Positions 26,136 through 36,819 of a DNA stretch of 64,000 nucleotides are shown here, piece by piece. The notes under the pieces are model-generated. The model was not told the DNA's origin and searched no databases. It saw nothing but the letters and a program-made list of their open reading frames with translations. Origin of the DNA: Arthrobacter sp. Leaf137 (lineage in GTDB: Bacteria; Actinomycetota; Actinomycetes; Actinomycetales; Micrococcaceae); assembly GCF_001423525.1 (NCBI RefSeq), contig NZ_LMOI01000002.1, positions 151,110 to 215,109 of the forward strand, given 5' to 3'. A program made the position numbers and the translations under genes. Position 1 is the stretch's first letter, and the number at the start of each line of letters is the position of its first letter.

Positions 26136-26144
26136 GAGATTTCC

Positions 26145-26595: not shown

Positions 26596-28017
26596 TCAGC
26601 GCTTGGCGGCAGCCAGGCGATCGTCGTCGTCGTCCGCGCTGGCTGCTGTGCCGGCGTCCCAGGCATGGCCCTGCTCCTGGTCCAGGTGCGTCGACTTCTT
26701 GTTCTTGAGCGCGAAGATGTAGACCAGCAGCGATACGCCGATGGCCACGGTGACGTAGGTGAAGAGCAGTTCCACCTGGCCGGCCTTCTGCAGGGCTGCG
26801 CCGATCAGCGGGACGGTGCCGCCGAACATCGAGTTGGCGAGCGCGTAGCCCAGCCCCACGCCGAGGGCCCGGATCGAGGCGGGGAACAGCTCGGCCTTCA
26901 CCAGGGCGTTGATGGAGGTGTAGCCGCCCACGATCAGCAGGCCGCCCATCATCAGCAGGAACGCGACCATCGGGTCCTTGGTGCCGGCGAGCGCGGACAT
27001 CAGCGGCCAGGTGAACAGCACGCCCGTGATGCCGAACCAGAGCAGCAGCGGCTTGCGGCCGATCTTGTCCGAGATAATGCCGTAGACGGGCTGCAGCAGC
27101 ATGAAGATAAACAGGGCCCAGAAGTTGATGACCGAGGTGGTTTCCTTGGGAATGCCGCTGGTGTTGTTCATGAAGCTGAGGATGAAGTTGGTGTACGTGT
27201 AGAACGCCACGGTGCCACCCAGGGTGACGCCGATGCAGATCAGCAGCGCCCTCCAGTGCTTGGTGAAGAGCAGCTTGAGCGTGCCGGGCTGCGCCTCGCC
27301 GGATGCCTTGGCGTTTGCGGCCGCTTCCACCTGGCTGGCGGAGACGGTTTCCTCCATGGAGCGCCGCAGCCACAGGACCACCAGTGCAGCCACGCCGCCG
27401 ATGGCGAACGGAATGCGCCAGCCCCACTCGGTCAGGGCGTCCTTGCCCAGGGCGTTCTGCAGGACCACCAGGACCAGCAGGGCCAGCATCTGGCCGCCGA
27501 TCAGGGTGACGTACTGGAAGCTGGAGAAGAAGCCGCGGCGCTTGGCGGTGGCGGCCTCGGACATGTAGGTGGCACTGGTGCCGTATTCGCCGCCCACGGA
27601 GAAGCCCTGCACCAGGCGCGCCAGGACCAGCAGGACCAGGGCCCAAACGCCGATAACGTCCTTGGTGGGCAGGATGGCGATGAAGAAGGAACCGGCGGAC
27701 ATCATGGTCACGCTCAGCGTCAGGGCGGCTTTCCGGCCCCGGCGGTCGGCGAAACGGCCGAAGAACCAGCTGCCGATGGGCCGCATGAGGAAGGTAACGG
27801 CGAAGACGGCCATGCCTTCGAGGGCGCCCTGCAGCGGGTCCTTGGAATTGAAGAAGTGCGGCTGGAAGTAGGCCAGGAACGCCGTGTAGATGTAGACGTC
27901 GTACCACTCCACCAGGTTTCCGGCGGAGCCCTTGAGGATGTTGCCCACGGCCCGGCGGGTCTGTGCCGCCTCGGACTGGGCCGCCCCCGTCAGCGGCGCT
28001 GCTTGTTCGGTGCTCAT
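26596..28017 (-). CDS. MHS-family MFS permease (alpha-ketoglutarate/dicarboxylate permease-like)
   Basis: 473-residue, 12-helix H+ symporter of the metabolite:H+ symporter family. GNLVEWYDVYIYTAF in helix 1, GRFADRRGRKAAL in the loop 2-3, LARLVQGFSVGGEYGTSATY and EEWGW-like TEWGWRIPFAIGG are diagnostic and closest in feel to KgtP. The substrate is likely an organic acid, not proven. ATG at 28017 (or the adjacent 28020), with AGGAAGG upstream. It is divergent from a two-component system, and the 221-bp gap holds a TTCCTAA/TTAGGAA repeat. Confidence 0.85.
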   Translation of the reverse strand: MSTEQAAPLTGAAQSEAAQTRRAVGNILKGSAGNLVEWYDVYIYTAFLAYFQPHFFNSKDPLQGALEGMAVFAVTFLMRPIGSWFFGRFADRRGRKAALTLSVTMMSAGSFFIAILPTKDVIGVWALVLLVLARLVQGFSVGGEYGTSATYMSEAATAKRRGFFSSFQYVTLIGGQMLALLVLVVLQNALGKDALTEWGWRIPFAIGGVAALVVLWLRRSMEETVSASQVEAAANAKASGEAQPGTLKLLFTKHWRALLICIGVTLGGTVAFYTYTNFILSFMNNTSGIPKETTSVINFWALFIFMLLQPVYGIISDKIGRKPLLLWFGITGVLFTWPLMSALAGTKDPMVAFLLMMGGLLIVGGYTSINALVKAELFPASIRALGVGLGYALANSMFGGTVPLIGAALQKAGQVELLFTYVTVAIGVSLLVYIFALKNKKSTHLDQEQGHAWDAGTAASADDDDDRLAAAKR

Positions 28018-28111
28018 CATGAACCTTCCTTGGTGTGACGGTCTCCCGAAAGCGCGGAGGACCTCCACCAAACTATGGGTGATCCACGGCACAGCCAATG
28101 CGGAAGCGGGT

Positions 28112-28132
28112 TTCCTAACACTTCCTTAGGAA
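28112..28132. promoter_or_regulatory. TTCCTAA-N7-TTAGGAA inverted repeat, candidate response-regulator site
   Basis: Perfect 7-bp arms with a 7-bp spacer in the divergent region between the MHS permease and the OmpR-type regulator. The same stretch also reads as direct repeats TTCCTAACAC / TTCCTTAGGA with a 10-bp period, which suits OmpR-family binding. Confidence 0.5.
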
Positions 28133-28238
28133 TAGGCATTTCCCGGTTCCCAAGCGCCGGTTCCCCGTGAGGCGGTAATCTCCAAAGGCAGACTAGTCCC
28201 CGCACCCGACCCCCGCCCCAACCCCAAGGACAAGGAAC

Positions 28239-28913
28239 ATGGCCATGGAAGTGCTCATCGTCGAGGACGACGACGCCATGGCAGGTGCGCTGGCGGCGGG
28301 TGTTGCGACGGCGGGCCACCGGACCACGAGGGTGGCGCGGGGAGCTGACGCCCTGCTGGTCCACCGGGACTTCGAGGTGATCCTCCTGGACCTCGGGCTG
28401 CCGGACATGGACGGCCTGGACGTCCTCCGCAAGCTCCGCCAGATCACCGACTGCCCCATCCTCATCCTCACCGCCCGCGACGACGAACGCAGCGTGGTGC
28501 TGGGACTTCGCTCCGGCGCCGACGACTACCTGGTCAAACCCGTGAAACTCGTGGAACTGCTGGCACGGATCGAGGCCGTCACCCGGCGGGCCGGACGCCG
28601 CACCGGAAGCGTGCCGGACACCATCGTCCTGGGCGATCTCGACATTGACCTGGGCCGCCGCATCGCATCCAGGGACGGCGCGGTCCTCCCGCTGACGGCC
28701 ACGGAATTCGAACTCCTGTCCCTTCTGGCCCGGCACGCCGGCTCCGTGGTGACCCGGGAGCAGATCCTTGATGCCCTGTGGGGTGATGCTTTCCTCGCTT
28801 CGTCCCGGTCCCTGGATGTGCACCTGACCGGGTTGCGGGCCAAACTGCAGAAACCCGGTTTCATCATCAACGTCCGGGGCGTGGGCTACCGGGTGGAGGC
28901 AGATCCCGCATGA
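28239..28913 (+). CDS. OmpR-family response regulator
   Basis: 224 residues. Receiver domain with acidic Asp10-Asp12, phospho-acceptor Asp51 (LLDLGLPDMDG) and Lys100 (YLVKP). A winged-helix DNA-binding domain follows from about residue 125 (LTATEFELLSLLARHAGSVV, SRSLDVHLTGLRAKL). AAGGAAC precedes the ATG; the second ATG (28245) is also possible. The last 4 bp overlap the histidine kinase start. Likely targets are the adjacent permease and its own operon. Confidence 0.94.
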   Translation: MAMEVLIVEDDDAMAGALAAGVATAGHRTTRVARGADALLVHRDFEVILLDLGLPDMDGLDVLRKLRQITDCPILILTARDDERSVVLGLRSGADDYLVKPVKLVELLARIEAVTRRAGRRTGSVPDTIVLGDLDIDLGRRIASRDGAVLPLTATEFELLSLLARHAGSVVTREQILDALWGDAFLASSRSLDVHLTGLRAKLQKPGFIINVRGVGYRVEADPA

Positions 28914-30352
28914 GGTTGCGGGTCCTTGGCGTCCTCAGCGTGCTGTGCCTGGTGGTGGTGTTCCTGGTGTCCGGGACCATCCTGTCCTCGGCGGCGCGGG
29001 AGCTGACGCAGGAGGTCCAGATCAACCGGGTGGCGTCCCTGAACCGGCTGGCGCAGGTGGCCTTCGATGCGGCCGGCGACGGCGATACCGCGCGGCTCCA
29101 GCGCGAGATGGACACGTACTCCGCCCTCTATGCCGAGGGCATCATGGTCCGGCTGCAGCAGGAGACGCTCAGCTCGGGAGGGCTCAGTGAAGCCCGTGCC
29201 GACGTGCAGGATGCGCTGTCCCTGGCCCGGCTGAACGTCAACGGCACCGCACTGGCACCGCTGGAGCCGCTCGGTTCCGGCCCTCAGGTGATCTTCCGCG
29301 CCTTCGGCAGCGCCAACCAGGTGCTGGGCGGCGTGGCCATGGACGTCAACCTCGATGCCGCCAGGGCGAAGCTGCAGCAGCGCTGGCTTGTGGTGGGGGC
29401 GGCCGCCGTCGCCCTCGCTGCGGTCCTGCTGCTTGCCGCCGCCCGTGTCACCGGGTGGGTGCTGCGTCCCGTCCTGCGGCTGAATTCCGCGGTGACCGAG
29501 CTGGGCCGCACGGGCCGGGCCGGGCGGCTGCCTGAGGACGGTCCGCCGGAGCTGCGCGAACTGAGCCGGTCCTTCACTGCCATGGCGCGGACGGTCAGCG
29601 ACAGCATCGAGTCGCAGCGCCAGTTGATCGCCGATACGTCGCACCAGCTGCGGAACCCCATCGGCGCGCTGCGGCTGCGGCTGGACGTACTCCAGCTTGA
29701 ACTGAAGACCGAACGGGAACACGACGCCGCCGCCAGCGCGGTGGCCGAGCTGGAGCGGGTGGAGGAGATCCTGGACGACGTGTTGAAGCTGGCCGCCGCC
29801 GAGCACCGGGCCAGTGAAGACGCCGTCAGGGCCTTCAACAGCCCGGAGGCCAGGCCCGTTGCTGCGCCGATCGACCCCTACCCCGTCCTGCAGGAGGAAA
29901 TGGAGCGGGCTGCCCCCGCTGCGGGCCGCGCCGGTATGCGGCTGGTCCTCGTTCCCCCGCCGCAGGCCCCCGTCCTGGTGGCGTGCGAGCCGGCCGAGCT
30001 CGCCCAGATGGTGGGCGAACTCGTGGGCAACGCGGTCAAGTACGCCCCGGGAGCCACCGTCACTGCTTCCGTCCGGGCTGAGCTTTCCACGGTCACAGTG
30101 GAAATTTACGACGACGGCCCGGGGCTTTCCGAACAGGACCTCGCCCAGGCGTCCACGAGGTTTTGGCGGGCGCCCCAGCACGCCTCGGTCCGGGGAACAG
30201 GCCTGGGCATGACGATCGTGGGTGAACTGGCGGCGGCCAACGGTGGCCGCCTGGTCCTGGGAACGGCGGCACCGCACGGCCTGTCAGCCCGGCTCGAATT
30301 TCCTGTTCCGGTGCTGGAGGACCGCTCCGAAGGCGGGGATGGACGTGGCTGA
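28910..30352 (+). CDS. Sensor histidine kinase
   Basis: 480-residue membrane kinase. Two membrane helices (about 5-25 and 159-180) bracket an extracytoplasmic sensor of about 130 residues. A HAMP-like linker follows, then the H-box DTSHQLRNPIGAL with His245, an N-box GNAVKYAPG, and G-boxes DDGPGLS and GTGLGMTIV. It is coupled to the response regulator (ATGA overlap) and overlaps the TAXI lipoprotein gene by 14 bp. This suggests that sensing may involve that lipoprotein. Confidence 0.93.
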   Translation: MRLRVLGVLSVLCLVVVFLVSGTILSSAARELTQEVQINRVASLNRLAQVAFDAAGDGDTARLQREMDTYSALYAEGIMVRLQQETLSSGGLSEARADVQDALSLARLNVNGTALAPLEPLGSGPQVIFRAFGSANQVLGGVAMDVNLDAARAKLQQRWLVVGAAAVALAAVLLLAAARVTGWVLRPVLRLNSAVTELGRTGRAGRLPEDGPPELRELSRSFTAMARTVSDSIESQRQLIADTSHQLRNPIGALRLRLDVLQLELKTEREHDAAASAVAELERVEEILDDVLKLAAAEHRASEDAVRAFNSPEARPVAAPIDPYPVLQEEMERAAPAAGRAGMRLVLVPPPQAPVLVACEPAELAQMVGELVGNAVKYAPGATVTASVRAELSTVTVEIYDDGPGLSEQDLAQASTRFWRAPQHASVRGTGLGMTIVGELAAANGGRLVLGTAAPHGLSARLEFPVPVLEDRSEGGDGRG

Positions 30353-31376
30353 GGTCAGGGCGTCCGGCCTTATCGGGGCCGTCCTGCCCAGGCGGTCCCT
30401 CCTGAAAGCCGGGGCAGGCCTGGCAGCAATGGCCCTCGTCCCGTCTGTGCTGTCCGCCTGCAGCGGGAACCGGCCCGGGCTGCTGACCGTGGCGGGCGGG
30501 GAGGCAGGTGGCTTCTACCTTGAGTTCTCCACTCTGCTGGCCGCTTCCCTGGAACGCCACGACATAGCCGGAAAGGCTGTAGCCGTTGCCACCGGCGGCA
30601 GCCTGGACAACCTGGCGCAGTTGCGGGATGGAAGGGCCACGCTTGCCGTGTCCCTGGCCGATGCGGTGGCCGGCCCTGCTGTGGAGCCGGGAACCACGGC
30701 TGCCGAGGGCGCCGCGCCGCTGGCCGCGCTGGGGAAGGTCTACGAAAACTACGTACACTGCGTGGTGCGGAAAGGCAGCGGCATCACTTCACTGTCACAG
30801 CTGTCCGGGCGGACCGTGGCAGTGGGCCAGCCGGGTTCGGGGACGTCGCTCACCACGCCGCGGCTGCTCGCGGCAGCGGGCCTTGGCACCTCGGCGGAGG
30901 CCGGGCCGGCGGCGCAAGGCAGCGTCGCCGTCGTAAGCCTGGGCCTGAACGACGGCCTCGCGGCCCTGAAGGCCGGTACCGTGGACGCCCTGTTCTGGTC
31001 CGGCGGCGTGCCCACGGCCGCCATCTCCGCCGCGCAGCGGGAGGTGCCGCTGGCGCTGCTGGACCTCTCGTCCCTGTTGCCGGAGCTGCGCGCCCGGCAC
31101 GGTGCCCAGTACGACCGCGTGTTCATCCCCGCGGAAAGCTACCCGGGTGTGCCCGCCGTCTGGACGGTGGGGACAGCCAACCTGTTGCTGTGCCGCGCCG
31201 ACCTGGACGCCGGCACCGTCGAGCGGACCGTGCAACTGCTGGTCAACCACGCCGGCGAACTGATTCCACAGTCCAGCCTGGGAGTGCAGTTCCTCAGCCC
31301 GGAAACGCTGATCAACACCGCCGGCATCCCCATGCACCCGGCCGCCGCCGCGGCGTACCGCGCCCTCCACGGCTAG
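30339..31376 (+). CDS. TAXI-family solute-binding lipoprotein
   Basis: 345 residues. The N-terminus has PRRSLLKAGAGLAA (twin-arginine-like) and lipobox LSAC with Cys41, so it is probably a Tat-exported lipoprotein. The mature part resembles TAXI-type TRAP receptors: TVAGGEAGGFYLEFSTLLAA, VATGGSLDNLAQLRDG and GRTVAVGQPGSGTS. No TRAP permease subunits (DctQM) are present in the window. It overlaps the histidine kinase gene. It may therefore serve the kinase as a ligand-presenting subunit or work with a distant permease. Start at 30339, GAAGG upstream. Confidence 0.85.
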   Translation: MDVAEVRASGLIGAVLPRRSLLKAGAGLAAMALVPSVLSACSGNRPGLLTVAGGEAGGFYLEFSTLLAASLERHDIAGKAVAVATGGSLDNLAQLRDGRATLAVSLADAVAGPAVEPGTTAAEGAAPLAALGKVYENYVHCVVRKGSGITSLSQLSGRTVAVGQPGSGTSLTTPRLLAAAGLGTSAEAGPAAQGSVAVVSLGLNDGLAALKAGTVDALFWSGGVPTAAISAAQREVPLALLDLSSLLPELRARHGAQYDRVFIPAESYPGVPAVWTVGTANLLLCRADLDAGTVERTVQLLVNHAGELIPQSSLGVQFLSPETLINTAGIPMHPAAAAAYRALHG

Positions 31377-31479: not shown

Positions 31480-31590
31480 TGGATCAGGGCTCCGGGGTCT
31501 TATCCACATACGCGCTTCCGGTGATAGCAGGCCGGACCGCGTCCTTCCTACTGTTTGGGTACACCTGAACAGCAAGCAAAGCGGGGATCT

Positions 31591-32097
31591 GTGGGCAGGA
31601 ATCAGCGCCGGCGGGCGGCACAAACCAAGTCTCAAAGGAACCAGCCTGGAGACCCTTTCAAGGCCGCCATTCCCAGGGTTACTAGCCCGGCACCCGGAAA
31701 TATCCGGGAGTTGGAATCCCTGGCTCCGGCCTTCATCTGTTGGTATGTCCAGCATCCATTCCGCACAGATGTCGAAGAAGTGCTGGCGAGCCTGATTCTC
31801 TTCTTCCGCTTCTACCCCGAAATTGGTGAGAACCGTTCCATCACTGCCCTCAAACCGGCTGAGGTGGCTGAAAGATTGGCCGCCCTCATTATCCATACCG
31901 TCCATGACGGCGTCGTGGCCACCTATTCACTGATGCTTTTCCTGCACTTCCTCCACGATTCCGGCCAGTGGTCCGGTAACCCGGAATCGTATCGGACTGT
32001 GCAGGCCATCCTGTTGGAAATCATCAGTTTGGACATGCGCGCGACACCCAACGGGGCGCCGACGGCTGCCGTCGTCGCGGCTGCCCACGCTGATTAG
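31591..32097 (+). CDS. Hypothetical protein
   Basis: 168 residues, not recognised. A basic N-terminus (MGRNQRRRAAQTKSQRN) precedes a helical body, with LESLAPAFICWYVQHPF, ERLAALIIHTVHDGVVATYS and LMLFLHFLHDSGQWSG. No signal peptide. GTG start with GGGGA 4 nt upstream. Base composition is somewhat less GC-rich than the neighbours. It is convergent with the RamB-like gene: the two stops overlap in TTAG. Confidence 0.6.
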   Translation: MGRNQRRRAAQTKSQRNQPGDPFKAAIPRVTSPAPGNIRELESLAPAFICWYVQHPFRTDVEEVLASLILFFRFYPEIGENRSITALKPAEVAERLAALIIHTVHDGVVATYSLMLFLHFLHDSGQWSGNPESYRTVQAILLEIISLDMRATPNGAPTAAVVAAAHAD

Positions 32098-33605
32098 CTC
32101 CCCGAGTGGGCCTGCAGGAAGCTGTACACCTCGGTCTCGTCGACGCCGGGGAAAGCGCCGGGCGGCATGGCTGCCAGCAGGTGCGAATGGGCCCGCGCAG
32201 AGGGCCAGGCGTTCCCGGCCCACTCCGAAGTCAGGGCTGCCGGCGGACGCTTGCAGCAGTTCGGGTCGGGACAATTGGAAGTGGCCCGGGCTGTCGTCTC
32301 ACGCCCGCGGAACCATTTCACGTGCTGGTAGGGCACCCCGATGCTGAGCGAGAACTCACCCGTGGCCGACCGCTCGGTCCGCGCGGTGCACCAGTACGTA
32401 CCCGACGGCGTGTCCGTGTACTGGCTATAGGCGCTGAACTTGTCCGGAACGTCGAACACGGCACGGGATGTCCAGGCCTTGCACGACGGCTGGCCCTCGA
32501 TGGCGCCGGTGTGGTCCTGGGGGAAGTTCACGCCATCGTTCTCGTAGGCCTTGTAGATGATCCCGCTCTGGTGCGTCTTCTGGAAATGCGTGGTGATACC
32601 CAGGTGCCTGGTGGCCAGGTTGGTGAACCGGTGCGCGGCGGTCTCGTAGGAAACGGCGAACGCATCCCGGATGTCCTCCACCGCGATTTCCTTGGCGGCT
32701 TTGGCGTTTTGCAGAAATTCCACGGTGGCCTGCTCGGGAAGAAGCAGCGCCGCGGCGAAATAGTTGGTCGCCACCCGCTGGGCCAGGAAGTCGCCATAGT
32801 TGCGGGGCGTTTCGTGGCCCAGGACGTAGTGTCCCAGTGCCTGGAGCAGCACGGACCGGGGATCGTGGTCCTGCCGCTGGCTTTGGGTCAGGTAAATTCT
32901 GCGGTTCTTCAAATCGGTCACGGACCGGGTGGAATGCGGCAAATCGCCCACGTGGTACAGGGCGAATCCAAGGTGCGCGGCGATGTCCGCGATGACATGC
33001 TGGCTCAGCGGGCCGGCGGTGTAGCCCACCTCCTTGAGGACCTTCTGCGCTTCGGCCTCGTACTCCGGGAAGTAGTTGCCGCGCTCGCGCATCATGGCAC
33101 GCAGCTCACCGTTGGCGCGCCGGGCTTCTTCCGGGGTGGCCACCTGCTCGTTCATCTTCCGCTCCAGCTCGTGCAGGAGCCCCACCTGGGCCTCGAGTAC
33201 ATCCAGCGGAAGCCGCGAACTGATGCGGATTTTCGGCAGGTTGAGGGACTCGTACAGCGGTCCGCGCTGGTACCGTTCCAGCTCGATTTCCAGGGCTGCC
33301 CGCCGGCTGGGCGGTTCGGCACCCAGGAGCTGGTCGATGCTGACGTTCAGCGCCGCGGCCAGGTGCTGCAGAAGAGTCAGTTTGGGCTCACGCTTGCCGT
33401 TTTCGATCAGGCTGAGCTGACTGGGGGCGGTCCCGACGGCGGCGCTCAGGCCATCGAGCGTGAGCCCGGCTTGTTTACGCAGATGGCGGACGCGGCGGCC
33501 CAGCGCAATGACATCGAGTCCCGCTGCGGCGGCTGACGGCGGCTGGGAAACGTCCCTGTTCCAACTTGAAGGCGGCATTTCTGAAGAATACGTGAAGAAG
33601 TGCAT
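32094..33605 (-). CDS. ramB: RamB-like short-chain fatty acyl transcriptional regulator
   Basis: 503 residues. An XRE-type HTH (about 36-90; [35 protein letters not shown]) is followed by an ImmA/IrrE-like middle region ([19 protein letters not shown]) and a Cys-containing C-terminal domain ([12 protein letters not shown]) of the DUF2083 type. RamB controls acetate and glyoxylate-cycle genes in corynebacteria and mycobacteria. Here it is divergent from aceA, the expected location. The start could also be the ATG at 33578; neither has a strong Shine-Dalgarno. I found no exact RamB consensus site by eye. Confidence 0.85.
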
Positions 33606-33753
33606 TTCTTTCCATAGGTTTCATCTAGAACGGGGGTTGAAAGTGCTGAAAAGTAGTTCACACGGAAAGAAACACCGCACCGGAAAGCCGGTGGGAACCT
33701 CAATGACGCGGTTCCCACCTACCCCATCCGGAGCTCAATCAAGGAGATCAACG

Positions 33754-35070
33754 ATGACTGCAGCATTTGAGCCCACCTCGCAGACGCCCGACCAGCAGGC
33801 CGCCGCACTTGAGCTCGAGTGGTCCGCCAACCCCCGCTGGGAAGGTGTGACCCGGGACTACTCAGCCTCCGACGTCGTCCGCCTCCGCGGCCGCGTCACC
33901 GAAGAGCAGACGCTGGCCCGCCGCGGTGCGGAGAAGCTGTGGAAGCAGCTCACCGAAGAGCACAAGACCGGCGGCTACACCAACGCCCTGGGTGCCCTCA
34001 CCGGCAACCAGGCAGTGCAGCAGGTCAAGGCCGGCCTCCGCGCCATCTACCTTTCCGGTTGGCAGGTGGCCGCCGATGCCAACAATTCCGGCCACACCTA
34101 CCCGGACCAGTCCCTCTACCCGGCCAACTCCGTCCCCACAGTGGTCCGCCGTATCAACAACGCCCTGCTCCGGGCGGACCAGATCGAATTCTCCGAGGGC
34201 ATCCAGACCGTTGAGGACTGGCTGGTCCCGATTGTTGCCGACGCCGAAGCCGGTTTCGGCGGCCCGCTGAACGCCTACGAGCTGATGAAATCCATGATCC
34301 AGGCCGGCGCCTCCGGCGTGCACTGGGAAGACCAGCTCGCCTCCGAGAAGAAATGCGGCCACCTCGGCGGCAAGGTACTCATCCCCACCCAGCAGCACGT
34401 CCGCACCCTCAACGCCGCCCGCCTGGCGGCCGACGTCGCCGGTACCCCCACCGTCGTCATCGCCCGCACTGATGCTGAGGCAGCCACCCTGATCACCTCG
34501 GACGTGGACGAGCGGGACCAGGAGTTCATCACCGGGGAGCGCACCGCCGAGGGCTTCTACAAGGTCCGCAACGGCATCGAACCCTGCATCGCCCGGGCCA
34601 AGGCCTACGCCCCGTACTCCGACCTCATCTGGATGGAGACGGGCACCCCGGACCTGGAACTGGCCCGCAAGTTCGCCGAGTCCGTCAAGGCCGAGTTCCC
34701 GGACCAGATGCTCTCCTACAACTGCTCGCCGTCCTTCAACTGGCGCAAGCACCTGGACGACGCCACCATCGCAAAGTTCCAGCGCGAACTCGGCGCCATG
34801 GGCTTCACGTTCCAGTTCATCACCCTGGCCGGATTCCACGCCCTGAACTACTCGATGTTCGATCTTGCCCACGGCTACGCCCGGGAAGGCATGAGCGCCT
34901 ACGTCGAACTCCAGGAGAAGGAATTCGCCTCCGAATCCCGCGGCTACACCGCAACCAAGCACCAGCGCGAAGTCGGCACCGGCTACTTCGACACCCTCTC
35001 CACCGCGCTCAACCCGAACGCGTCCACCCTCGCATTGGTCGGATCGACCGAAGAGGGCCAGTTCCACTAA
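33754..35070 (+). CDS. aceA: Isocitrate lyase
   Basis: 438 residues. Splits isocitrate into succinate and glyoxylate, the first step of the glyoxylate shunt. The active-site signature [11 protein letters not shown] has catalytic Cys201. Also seen: [12 protein letters not shown]-like [20 protein letters not shown] and [14 protein letters not shown] at 33754 with AAGGAG 9 nt upstream; longer in-frame extensions run into the regulatory region. It is followed by aceB with a stem-loop in between, and controlled in all likelihood by the divergent RamB-like protein. Confidence 0.97.
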
Positions 35071-35089
35071 TACATCCCTCCCCAAGTAA

Positions 35090-35137
35090 GTAGCAGTAGG
35101 TGTCGTTTTGGAGGCTCAAAGCGACACTTACTGCTAC
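35090..35137. repeat. Long stem-loop between aceA and aceB
   Basis: Two 21-nt arms starting GTAGCAGTA and ending TACTGCTAC, with loop GAGGCT. The only two non-Watson-Crick positions are G-U wobbles as RNA, so the whole 21-bp stem can form in the transcript. It could be an attenuator, an mRNA-stability element, or a member of an interspersed repeat family. Confidence 0.7.
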
Positions 35138-35166
35138 CCAGTTGGGACCTTTCAAGGAGAACTCCC

Positions 35167-36819
35167 ATGAACAGCTTCACCGATAGCTTCACCATCAACG
35201 GCATCACCATGACTGCCCAGCCCATATGCCGGCAGGATGAAGTGCTCACGCCGGACGCACTGGCTTTCATCGCCAAGCTGCACCGGGCCACCGCGGAACG
35301 CCGGCAGGAACTGCTTCAGGCACGAAGGACCCGACGCGCCAACATCGCCGCCGGCCAGGATCCGAGGTTCCTGCGGGAGACCGAACACATCCGCAACGAC
35401 GCGTCCTGGCGGGTGGCTCCCCCGGCCCCGGGCCTTGAGGACCGCCGGGTGGAGATCACCGGCCCGGTGGATAAGAAGATGACCATCAACGCCCTGAACT
35501 CCGGCGCCAAGGTCTGGCTGGCGGACATGGAAGACTCCTCCACCCCCACATGGCGGAACGTCATCAAAGGCCAGCTGAACCTCACCGACGCCCTGGAACG
35601 CCGCATCGACTTCACCAGCGAGGAAGGCAAGGAGTACAAGCTCCGCCCGGCCGGTGAACTGCCCACCATCGTGGTCCGCCCCAGGGGCTGGCACCTGCCC
35701 GAAAAGCACATGCTCATCGACGGCACCCCGATCGCGGGCGGCATCGTGGACTTCGGCCTGTTTTTCTTCCACAACGCCCGCCGCCTGCTGGCCCAGGGCA
35801 AGGGCCCGTACTTCTACCTGCCCAAGATCGAAAACCACCTCGAAGCCCGGCTCTGGAACGACATCTTCATCCTGGCCCAGGACCTGCTCGGCATCCCGCA
35901 GGGCACCATCCGCGCCACGGTACTGATCGAAACCATCACCGCAGCCTTCGAAATGGAGGAGATCCTCTACGAACTGCGGGACCACGCCTCGGGCCTGAAC
36001 GCCGGCCGCTGGGACTACATCTTCTCCATCATCAAGAACTTCCGTACCCGCGGCCCCCGCTTCGTCCTCCCGGACCGCGGCCAGGTGACCATGACCGCCC
36101 CGTTCATGCGCTCCTACACCGAGCAGCTGGTCCGGGCCTGCCACAAGCGCGGCGCCATGGCCATCGGCGGCATGGCCGCGGCCGTTCCCAACCGCAAGGA
36201 CCCCGAAGCCAACGCCAACGCCTTCGAGAAGGTCCGGGCGGACAAGACCCGCGAGGCCAGTGACGGCTTCGACGGCTCCTGGGTGGCCCACCCCGATCTG
36301 GTGCCCATCTGCCGTGAAGTGTTCGACGCCGTCCTCGGCGAGCGACCCAACCAGCTCGGCAAGCTCCGCGGGGACGTCACCCCGGACGACCGCGCCCTCA
36401 TCGATGTCGCCTCCCTGCACGGCACCATCACGGAGCAGGGCATCCGCAACAACATCGAAGTGGGCATCCGCTACATCGAGTCCTGGCTCCGCGGCAACGG
36501 CGCCGTGGCCATCCACAACCTGATGGAGGACGCCGCCACCGCGGAGATCTCCCGCTCCCAGCTCTGGCAGTGGATCTACGCCCGGGCCATCACCGACCAC
36601 GGCGAGATCATCACGCACGAATGGGTGGAGGATCTGCTGGACGGCGAATTCGCCCGGCTGGAGCGCTTCGACGGCGACCGCTTCGAGGACGCCCGGGACA
36701 TCTTCGAGGAAGTCACCCTCGCCACGGAGTTCCCGTCCTTCCTCACCCTCCCGGCCTACGCCCGCTACCTCACCGAAGCCCGCGAGAAGGCCACCGTGGA
36801 GGAGCTCGCAGCGGCCTGA
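35167..36819 (+). CDS. aceB: Malate synthase (form A)
   Basis: 550 residues, the usual length for malate synthase A. Condenses glyoxylate with acetyl-CoA to malate. Seen: [66 protein letters not shown] and [17 protein letters not shown] precedes the ATG. It is second gene of the aceA-aceB unit. A GC-rich hairpin at 36846-36900 follows the stop. Confidence 0.96.

What the first reader, a model, noticed from the sequence alone, without database searches (positions are those of the whole stretch)
26596..31376. Two-component system, TAXI lipoprotein and divergent MHS permease form one candidate sensing/uptake module
The sensor kinase gene overlaps a lipoprotein of the TAXI TRAP receptor type, yet no TRAP permease is present in the window. 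A TTCCTAA-N7-TTAGGAA repeat sits between the response regulator and the divergent MHS permease. The binding protein may present a carboxylate to the kinase, which then induces the permease.
Basis: inference. Interest (0 to 1): 0.6.

Follow-up and report, generated by a model that had tools for sequence, protein, structure and literature searches.

The report
Binding-protein-assisted sensor controlling a permease
A nutrient-binding lipoprotein of a family that normally feeds an importer appears here, and in many other actinobacteria, to serve instead as the sensing part of a two-component switch for a neighbouring, unrelated importer.

Summary
In detail: MHS-type permease (-), OmpR-type regulator, kinase, TAXI lipoprotein (+), exact TTCCTAA-N7-TTAGGAA at 28112-28132. 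The genome shows one TAXI gene and no TRAP permease. (1) The conserved site is a 10-bp-period direct repeat, TTCCTAACAC|TTCCTTAGG; the palindrome is complete in 10 of 73 regions. It lies upstream of the permease in 73 of 86 loci, following that gene when gene order changes, and is missing in 20 of 20 loci with the permease but no two-component genes. (2) TAXI is tied to the kinase: both occur in the same 40 of 197 family genomes, while 20 of 49 permease genomes lack both. On a tree, 79 kinase-linked and 28 TRAP-linked TAXI are parted by one branch (SH-aLRT 99). Partner importers vary: MHS, Nramp-like, TRAP, TctA, glutamate-type ABC, AAHS. In Streptomyces-type genomes the arrangement matches published GluR-GluK/gluABCD. 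One genome fuses kinase and TAXI. Ligand and physical contact are untested; a C4-C5 dicarboxylate is a weak best guess.

The parts
26596..28020 (-). MHS-type (metabolite:H+ symporter) MFS permease; nearest models PRK10406 (KgtP-like, name recalled) and TIGR00883, both below cut-off
28072..28098 (-). conserved block downstream of the site, read towards the permease (TTGG..TGTG-N7-TCAC..CATA); probable promoter (inferred)
   Evidence: the sigma-70 consensus scan found none
28079..28093 (-). TGTG-N7-TCAC, CRP/GlxR-like element (likeness recalled)
   Evidence: 58 of 73 regions, offset 17-19 nt in 55 of 58; shuffled 0.2%
28112..28130 (+). direct repeat TTCCTAACAC|TTCCTTAGG, proposed operator of the regulator (in this genome a palindrome extends to 28132)
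28239..28913 (+). OmpR-type response regulator
28910..30352 (+). sensor histidine kinase; N-terminal part modelled with a PAS/Cache-like extracytoplasmic fold
30339..31376 (+). TAXI-family binding protein with Tat-like (RRSLLK) and lipobox (LSAC) signal, both seen by eye
   Evidence: relatives

Best explanation
A binding-protein-assisted two-component switch. The membrane-tethered TAXI lipoprotein binds an organic acid outside the cell and, loaded, acts on the extracytoplasmic PAS/Cache-like domain of the adjacent kinase. The kinase phosphorylates the OmpR-type regulator, which binds TTCCTAACAC|TTCCTTAGG upstream of the MHS-type permease and turns on uptake of the same or a related acid. A CRP/GlxR-like element just downstream probably adds carbon-source control. 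The unit resembles GluR-GluK of Streptomyces, with the glutamate ABC importer replaced by an MHS-type permease. Likelihood by step: the site belongs to this two-component system and governs the permease 0.9; TAXI is a signalling partner of the kinase 0.8; activation rather than repression 0.7; ligand a C4-C5 dicarboxylate without amino group, such as 2-oxoglutarate, 0.4. All steps are inferred from sequence comparison; none is shown.
For: Kinase and TAXI occur in the same 40 of 197 family genomes, among them 6 of 12 of the window's genus. Of 43 kinase matches over 110 bits in 33 genomes chosen for a TAXI locus, 41 have TAXI close by. Site in 73 of 86 distinct permease+kinase+TAXI loci, in one orientation, 39-216 bases upstream of the permease; in 9 loci where the permease is not divergent from the regulator it stays with the permease, about 1.5-2.1 kb from the regulator start; reversed-motif control 4 sites in the same 1.45 Mb. 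No such site in 20 of 20 permease loci without the two-component genes. One mismatch-free site in the own genome. Sensor and transport TAXI are parted by one branch. Kinase::TAXI open frame in one genome. Lipobox in 80 of 89 MHS-linked TAXI. Of 88 MHS-linked TAXI, the Tyr (82) and Ser (86) of the VcGluP site are kept and its Gln is Leu or Met in 88 (residue roles from passages of PMC11574862).
Against: A review reports that GluK itself binds glutamate (PMC9739842), so TAXI may not be the primary receptor. The fusion is one genome, TAXI may still start inside the frame, and the model of it says nothing reliable on contact (pTM 0.45). The Gln is also absent in 33 of 40 TRAP-linked TAXI and in all 14 glutamate-ABC-linked ones, so the ligand guess is weak. 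The site is missing in 2 of 66 divergent loci and in 11 of 20 others: 8 Streptomyces-type (L150-L155, L188, L189), L072, L190 and L223. Consensus promoter scan found none. Nramp-like partners do not fit a simple carboxylate story. Two of 43 kinases have no TAXI match nearby. 19 of 145 kinase-linked TAXI have no identified transporter.
Confidence: 0.74

Rival explanations
1. The kinase senses the ligand by its own PAS/Cache-like domain, as reported for GluK. TAXI is only an accessory that concentrates or buffers ligand, or holds the kinase off.
For: Review statement that GluK binds glutamate (PMC9739842); the sensor domain model resembles domains of CitA and DcuS, two of them solved with citrate.
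Against: Kinase and TAXI have the same distribution in 197 genomes; among crystal structures WalK ranks first (Z 12.8), which leaves a role other than ligand binding open; fused frame in one genome.
Confidence: 0.17
2. TAXI is the substrate-delivering subunit of the MHS-type permease, a binding-protein-dependent MFS importer.
For: Constant neighbourhood in many permease loci.
Against: 20 of 49 genomes with the permease lack TAXI and kinase; kinase-linked TAXI also lie near Nramp-like, TctA, ABC and TRAP genes.
Confidence: 0.04
3. TAXI is a leftover of a lost TRAP transporter without present function.
For: No TRAP permease found in the genome.
Against: Open and conserved in many genera, co-inherited with the kinase, on its own side of a branch.
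Confidence: 0.02

Closest known systems
GluR-GluK / gluABCD of Streptomyces coelicolor (Li 2017; not held, known from passages of PMC9739842 and PMC10345050)
   Same: OmpR-type regulator and kinase divergent from the uptake genes they control.
   Different: Here the transporter is an MHS-type permease and TAXI is a Tat-like lipoprotein; the passages read do not mention a TAXI gene. The S. coelicolor sequences themselves were not compared.
BctC-BctDE of Bordetella (PMC5812351, passages)
   Same: A carboxylate-binding protein needed for induction through a two-component system, with two-hybrid contact
   Different: BctC is a TctC protein and also serves its own transporter
DctB-DctS-DctR of Bacillus subtilis (PMC6978683, passages)
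   Same: Accessory C4-dicarboxylate receptor working with a kinase and a secondary transporter of another kind
   Different: There the transporter DctA takes part in sensing; here kinase and TAXI occur with quite different transporters. The family of DctB is recalled only
TAXI-TRAP transporters, e.g. VcGluP (PMC11574862, outline and passages)
   Same: Same protein family; Tyr and Ser of the binding site kept
   Different: No TRAP permease; Gln of the glutamate site is Leu

Membership tests
TAXI proteins (TIGR02122) | sequence model over cut-off | tested here: met
   165.1 bits, cut-off 84.35
TAXI-TRAP transporter | fused DctQM permease partner | tested here: not met
   none found in the genome
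GluR-GluK system | OmpR-type regulator plus kinase divergent from an uptake gene | tested here: met
GluR-GluK system | gluABCD ABC importer as target | tested here: not met
   MHS-type permease in this place
GluR-GluK system | orthology with SCO5778/SCO5779 | not tested
   sequences not at hand; the best kinase matches in f26/g64 genomes lie at TAXI loci
GluR-GluK system | glutamate as ligand | not testable with these tools
   needs a binding assay
MHS family (TIGR00883) | model over cut-off | tested here: not met
   404.4 bits, cut-off 443.45, nearly full length; 'MHS-type' is used here for nearest kin
PAS/Cache (PDC) sensor domains | fold | tested here: inconclusive
   model pLDDT 85.1; WalK Z 12.8 (127 aligned, 3.0 A), DcuS Z 10.7, CitA Z 9.4-10.1; Foldseek best E 1.3e-3, none at 1e-3 or less; long helices in the model can raise Z
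Binding-protein-assisted kinases (BctC/BctE type) | physical contact of loaded binding protein with kinase | not testable with these tools
   the fusion model gives no reliable placement

The most novel reading that the evidence does not exclude
Actinomycetes hold a distinct branch of TAXI proteins dedicated to signalling: a TAXI-kinase-regulator cassette that is paired with at least six unrelated importer types (MHS-type, Nramp-like, TRAP with its own second TAXI, TctA, glutamate-type ABC, AAHS-like), the published GluR-GluK system being one case whose TAXI partner is not mentioned in the passages read.
Probability: 0.62. Interest if true: 0.76.

Novelty: new variant of a known kind. Interest (0 to 1): 0.63.

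Why it matters
Binding proteins that act on kinases are known, but a review passage counts only about ten characterised examples (PMC9602780), and another calls TAXI-TRAP transporters a neglected group, always with fused DctQM permeases (PMC5812351). A TAXI branch parted from its transporter and kept with a kinase would give a clean system in which sensing can be studied apart from transport. It offers candidate inputs for uncharacterised actinobacterial two-component systems, and makes testable whether glutamate sensing by GluK needs a partner.

Tried and rejected
Palindrome as the operator: rejected, since its outer bases vary. The same motif as operator in Streptomyces-type, TRAP-linked and glutamate-linked loci: not found in the regions printed; that script stopped with an error in its last group, so L072, L186, L187 and L191 were not printed, and L201 gave no region (L072 has a 5-mismatch site beside its permease). 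Contact surface from the fused protein: no usable result (no coordinates are laid in the box). Glutamate or not as ligand from the Gln column: undecided. Literature on TAXI with kinases: by titles and abstract starts, the listings show no paper on this cassette; others (20 of 29; 10 of 14; 12 of 1,606) listed a part only, and the library holds only part of the literature.

Errors of mine: one search translated the permease out of frame (P0001 unused); the 96-aa ORF at 26144 was searched out of frame, so its lack of a family means nothing. One search counted some genomes twice (93 loci, 79 with site) because of a slip in removing copies; one search replaces it (86 loci, 11 copies removed, 73 with site). 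L182 is not in that count because its kinase fell under the threshold; it has a 4-mismatch site by its permease. The window itself is not among the 86. In some searches, four loci (L038, L066, L072, L123) were dropped because the regulator's start motif was not recognised; 93 regions were given, 84 distinct. Automatic labels: 2 of 107 tree rows were relabelled by gene order (L193, L225 at 9224), 3 changes before and 1 after; 3 rows labelled none were left out.

Limits: loci were chosen for TAXI similarity, so 145 kinase-linked of 189 distinct TAXI (labels before correction) is no census; partner means a transporter gene within 7 kb, not always the next gene (the AAHS-like gene of L187 is about 5 kb off). 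The sets of genomes, and kinase-TAXI neighbours, were compared by eye. Output was cut.
Full report
What is there. The stretch holds an MHS-type permease (26596-28020, minus), and on the plus strand an OmpR-type regulator (28239-28913), a histidine kinase (28910-30352) and a TAXI binding protein (30339-31376); the last three overlap, so they are taken as one operon. The TAXI protein carries a Tat-like motif and a lipobox, seen by eye. The exact TTCCTAA-N7-TTAGGAA is at 28112-28132. In the whole genome one TAXI is found and no TRAP permease: TIGR02123 does not match, and the only DctM match is a GntP permease.

TAXI belongs to the kinase. In 197 genomes of the family, TAXI at 219 bits or more and the kinase at E 1e-40 or less occur in the same 40 genomes, 6 of 12 in the window's own genus. 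The permease at E 1e-140 or less occurs in 49, of which 20 lack both. None of these 40 genomes is among the 42 with a TRAP fused permease over the cut-off. In 33 genomes chosen because they hold a TAXI locus, 43 kinase matches exceed 110 bits; 39 lie within about 4 kb of a TAXI match, 2 more have TAXI by tblastn (L254, L255) and 2 have none (L256, L257); one genome (G302) gave no kinase match at E 1e-25. This is one genome, and TAXI could still start within the frame.

A branch of its own. Of 205 TAXI frames, 189 distinct, rules on distance labelled 145 kinase-linked, 40 TRAP-linked and 4 neither. A tree of 110 representatives puts TRAP-linked ones in one group with SH-aLRT 99; with two rows relabelled by gene order and three unlabelled rows left out, 79 sensor and 28 transport rows need one change. 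Among 71 sensor rows with a known partner the tree needs 8 changes between 6 transporter types. Partners within 7 kb of the 145: MHS-type 89, Nramp-like 13, TRAP 11, glutamate-type ABC 11, AAHS-like 1, TctA 1, none identified 19, and a further TctA in L254. Family checks of examples: Nramp, TctA and SBP_bac_3 over cut-off in Pfam, TRAP_fused over cut-off, AAHS (TIGR00895) 218.6 bits, under its cut-off of 418.55.

The operator. Of 84 distinct upstream regions 73 hold the site with at most 4 of 19 mismatches; bases 1-19 average 1.82 bits, the two outer palindrome bases 0.75; the full palindrome is in 10 of 73, while the two 7-base halves at 10-base period agree in 6 of 7 positions in 58 of 73. 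Direct repeats of this sort suit OmpR-type regulators (general knowledge). TGTG-N7-TCAC follows in 58 of 73 (54 of 63 MHS-type, 4 of 10 Nramp-like), in 55 of 58 at an offset of 17-19. The own genome has CRP-type regulators, best match 68.6 bits. In 86 distinct loci with permease, kinase and TAXI the site is present in 73: 64 of 66 divergent and 9 of 20 others, always in one orientation and upstream of the permease, although in those 9 the regulator start is about 1.5-2.1 kb away; the reversed motif gives 4 sites in the same DNA. In L125, where permease and regulator are about 2 kb apart, the site is beside the permease. In all 20 family genomes with the permease but without kinase and TAXI, the permease locus lacks it (best 6 or more mismatches). 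The own genome has one copy without mismatch; two further hits with 2 and 3 mismatches are fewer than the reversed-pattern control gives.

The sensor. The N-terminal 192 residues of the kinase model well (pLDDT 85.1) and resemble extracytoplasmic domains of WalK, DcuS and CitA (Z 12.8, 10.7 and up to 10.1), though Foldseek has no match at E 1e-3 or less. So the kinase might bind a ligand itself or be driven by a partner.

The pocket. Against VcGluP (PMC11574862, passages; columns placed by way of the alignment with the Thermus protein 1us4), MHS-linked TAXI keep the Tyr (82 of 88) and Ser (86 of 88) and have Leu or Met in place of Gln (88 of 88); 33 of 40 TRAP-linked TAXI lack that Gln too. 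With a KgtP-like nearest transporter model and glyoxylate-cycle genes next door, a dicarboxylate without amino group is a possible but weak guess.

Known relatives. The order TAXI, kinase, regulator, then divergent glutamate-type ABC genes in L210-L213, L215, L216 and L218 fits GluR-GluK/gluABCD of S. coelicolor as two reviews describe it. The original paper was not held, so its own account of the neighbourhood was not seen. Working models are BctC-BctE and DctB-DctS.

Verdict. The finding is real. It most likely works like a binding-protein-assisted two-component system and is a variant of a known kind; the new points are the signalling branch of TAXI, its varied importers, and a corrected, well-supported operator.

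Noticed in passing
window 32094-36819: HTH/IrrE-type regulator (RamB model 53.9 bits, far under its cut-off of 700), isocitrate lyase and a long frame taken by eye for malate synthase lie beside TAXI; the same trio is near TAXI in many related loci.
   Followed up: partly
L062-L071, L142, L144, L186: The importer next to the sensory cassette is Nramp-like (metal transporter family), hard to fit with a carboxylate signal.
   Followed up: partly
L073, L192, L200, L202, L208, L221, L224, L225, L226: Two or more TAXI genes in one locus: one beside the kinase, others beside the TRAP permease.
   Followed up: yes
L194, L199, L201, L210-L218, L227: TAXI near glutamate-type ABC genes mostly lack a lipobox (1 of 11 has one) and, in those printed, show a hydrophobic N-terminal stretch, perhaps another way of staying at the membrane.
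   Followed up: partly
window 28079-28093: CRP/GlxR-like TGTG-N7-TCAC at near-fixed distance from the operator in most relatives.
   Followed up: partly
window 31555-32097: Small ORF downstream of TAXI; residues from 31591 on have no Pfam or NCBIfam match at E 0.001.
   Followed up: no
L187: Cassette with an AAHS-like MFS gene and, by eye, an amidohydrolase-like gene upstream.
   Followed up: no
Arthrobacter sp. StoSoilB13, NZ_AP024649.1, 778673-779647: A 1 Mb plasmid record holds a TAXI relative at 52% identity, unannotated in the table; its neighbourhood was not looked at.
   Followed up: no
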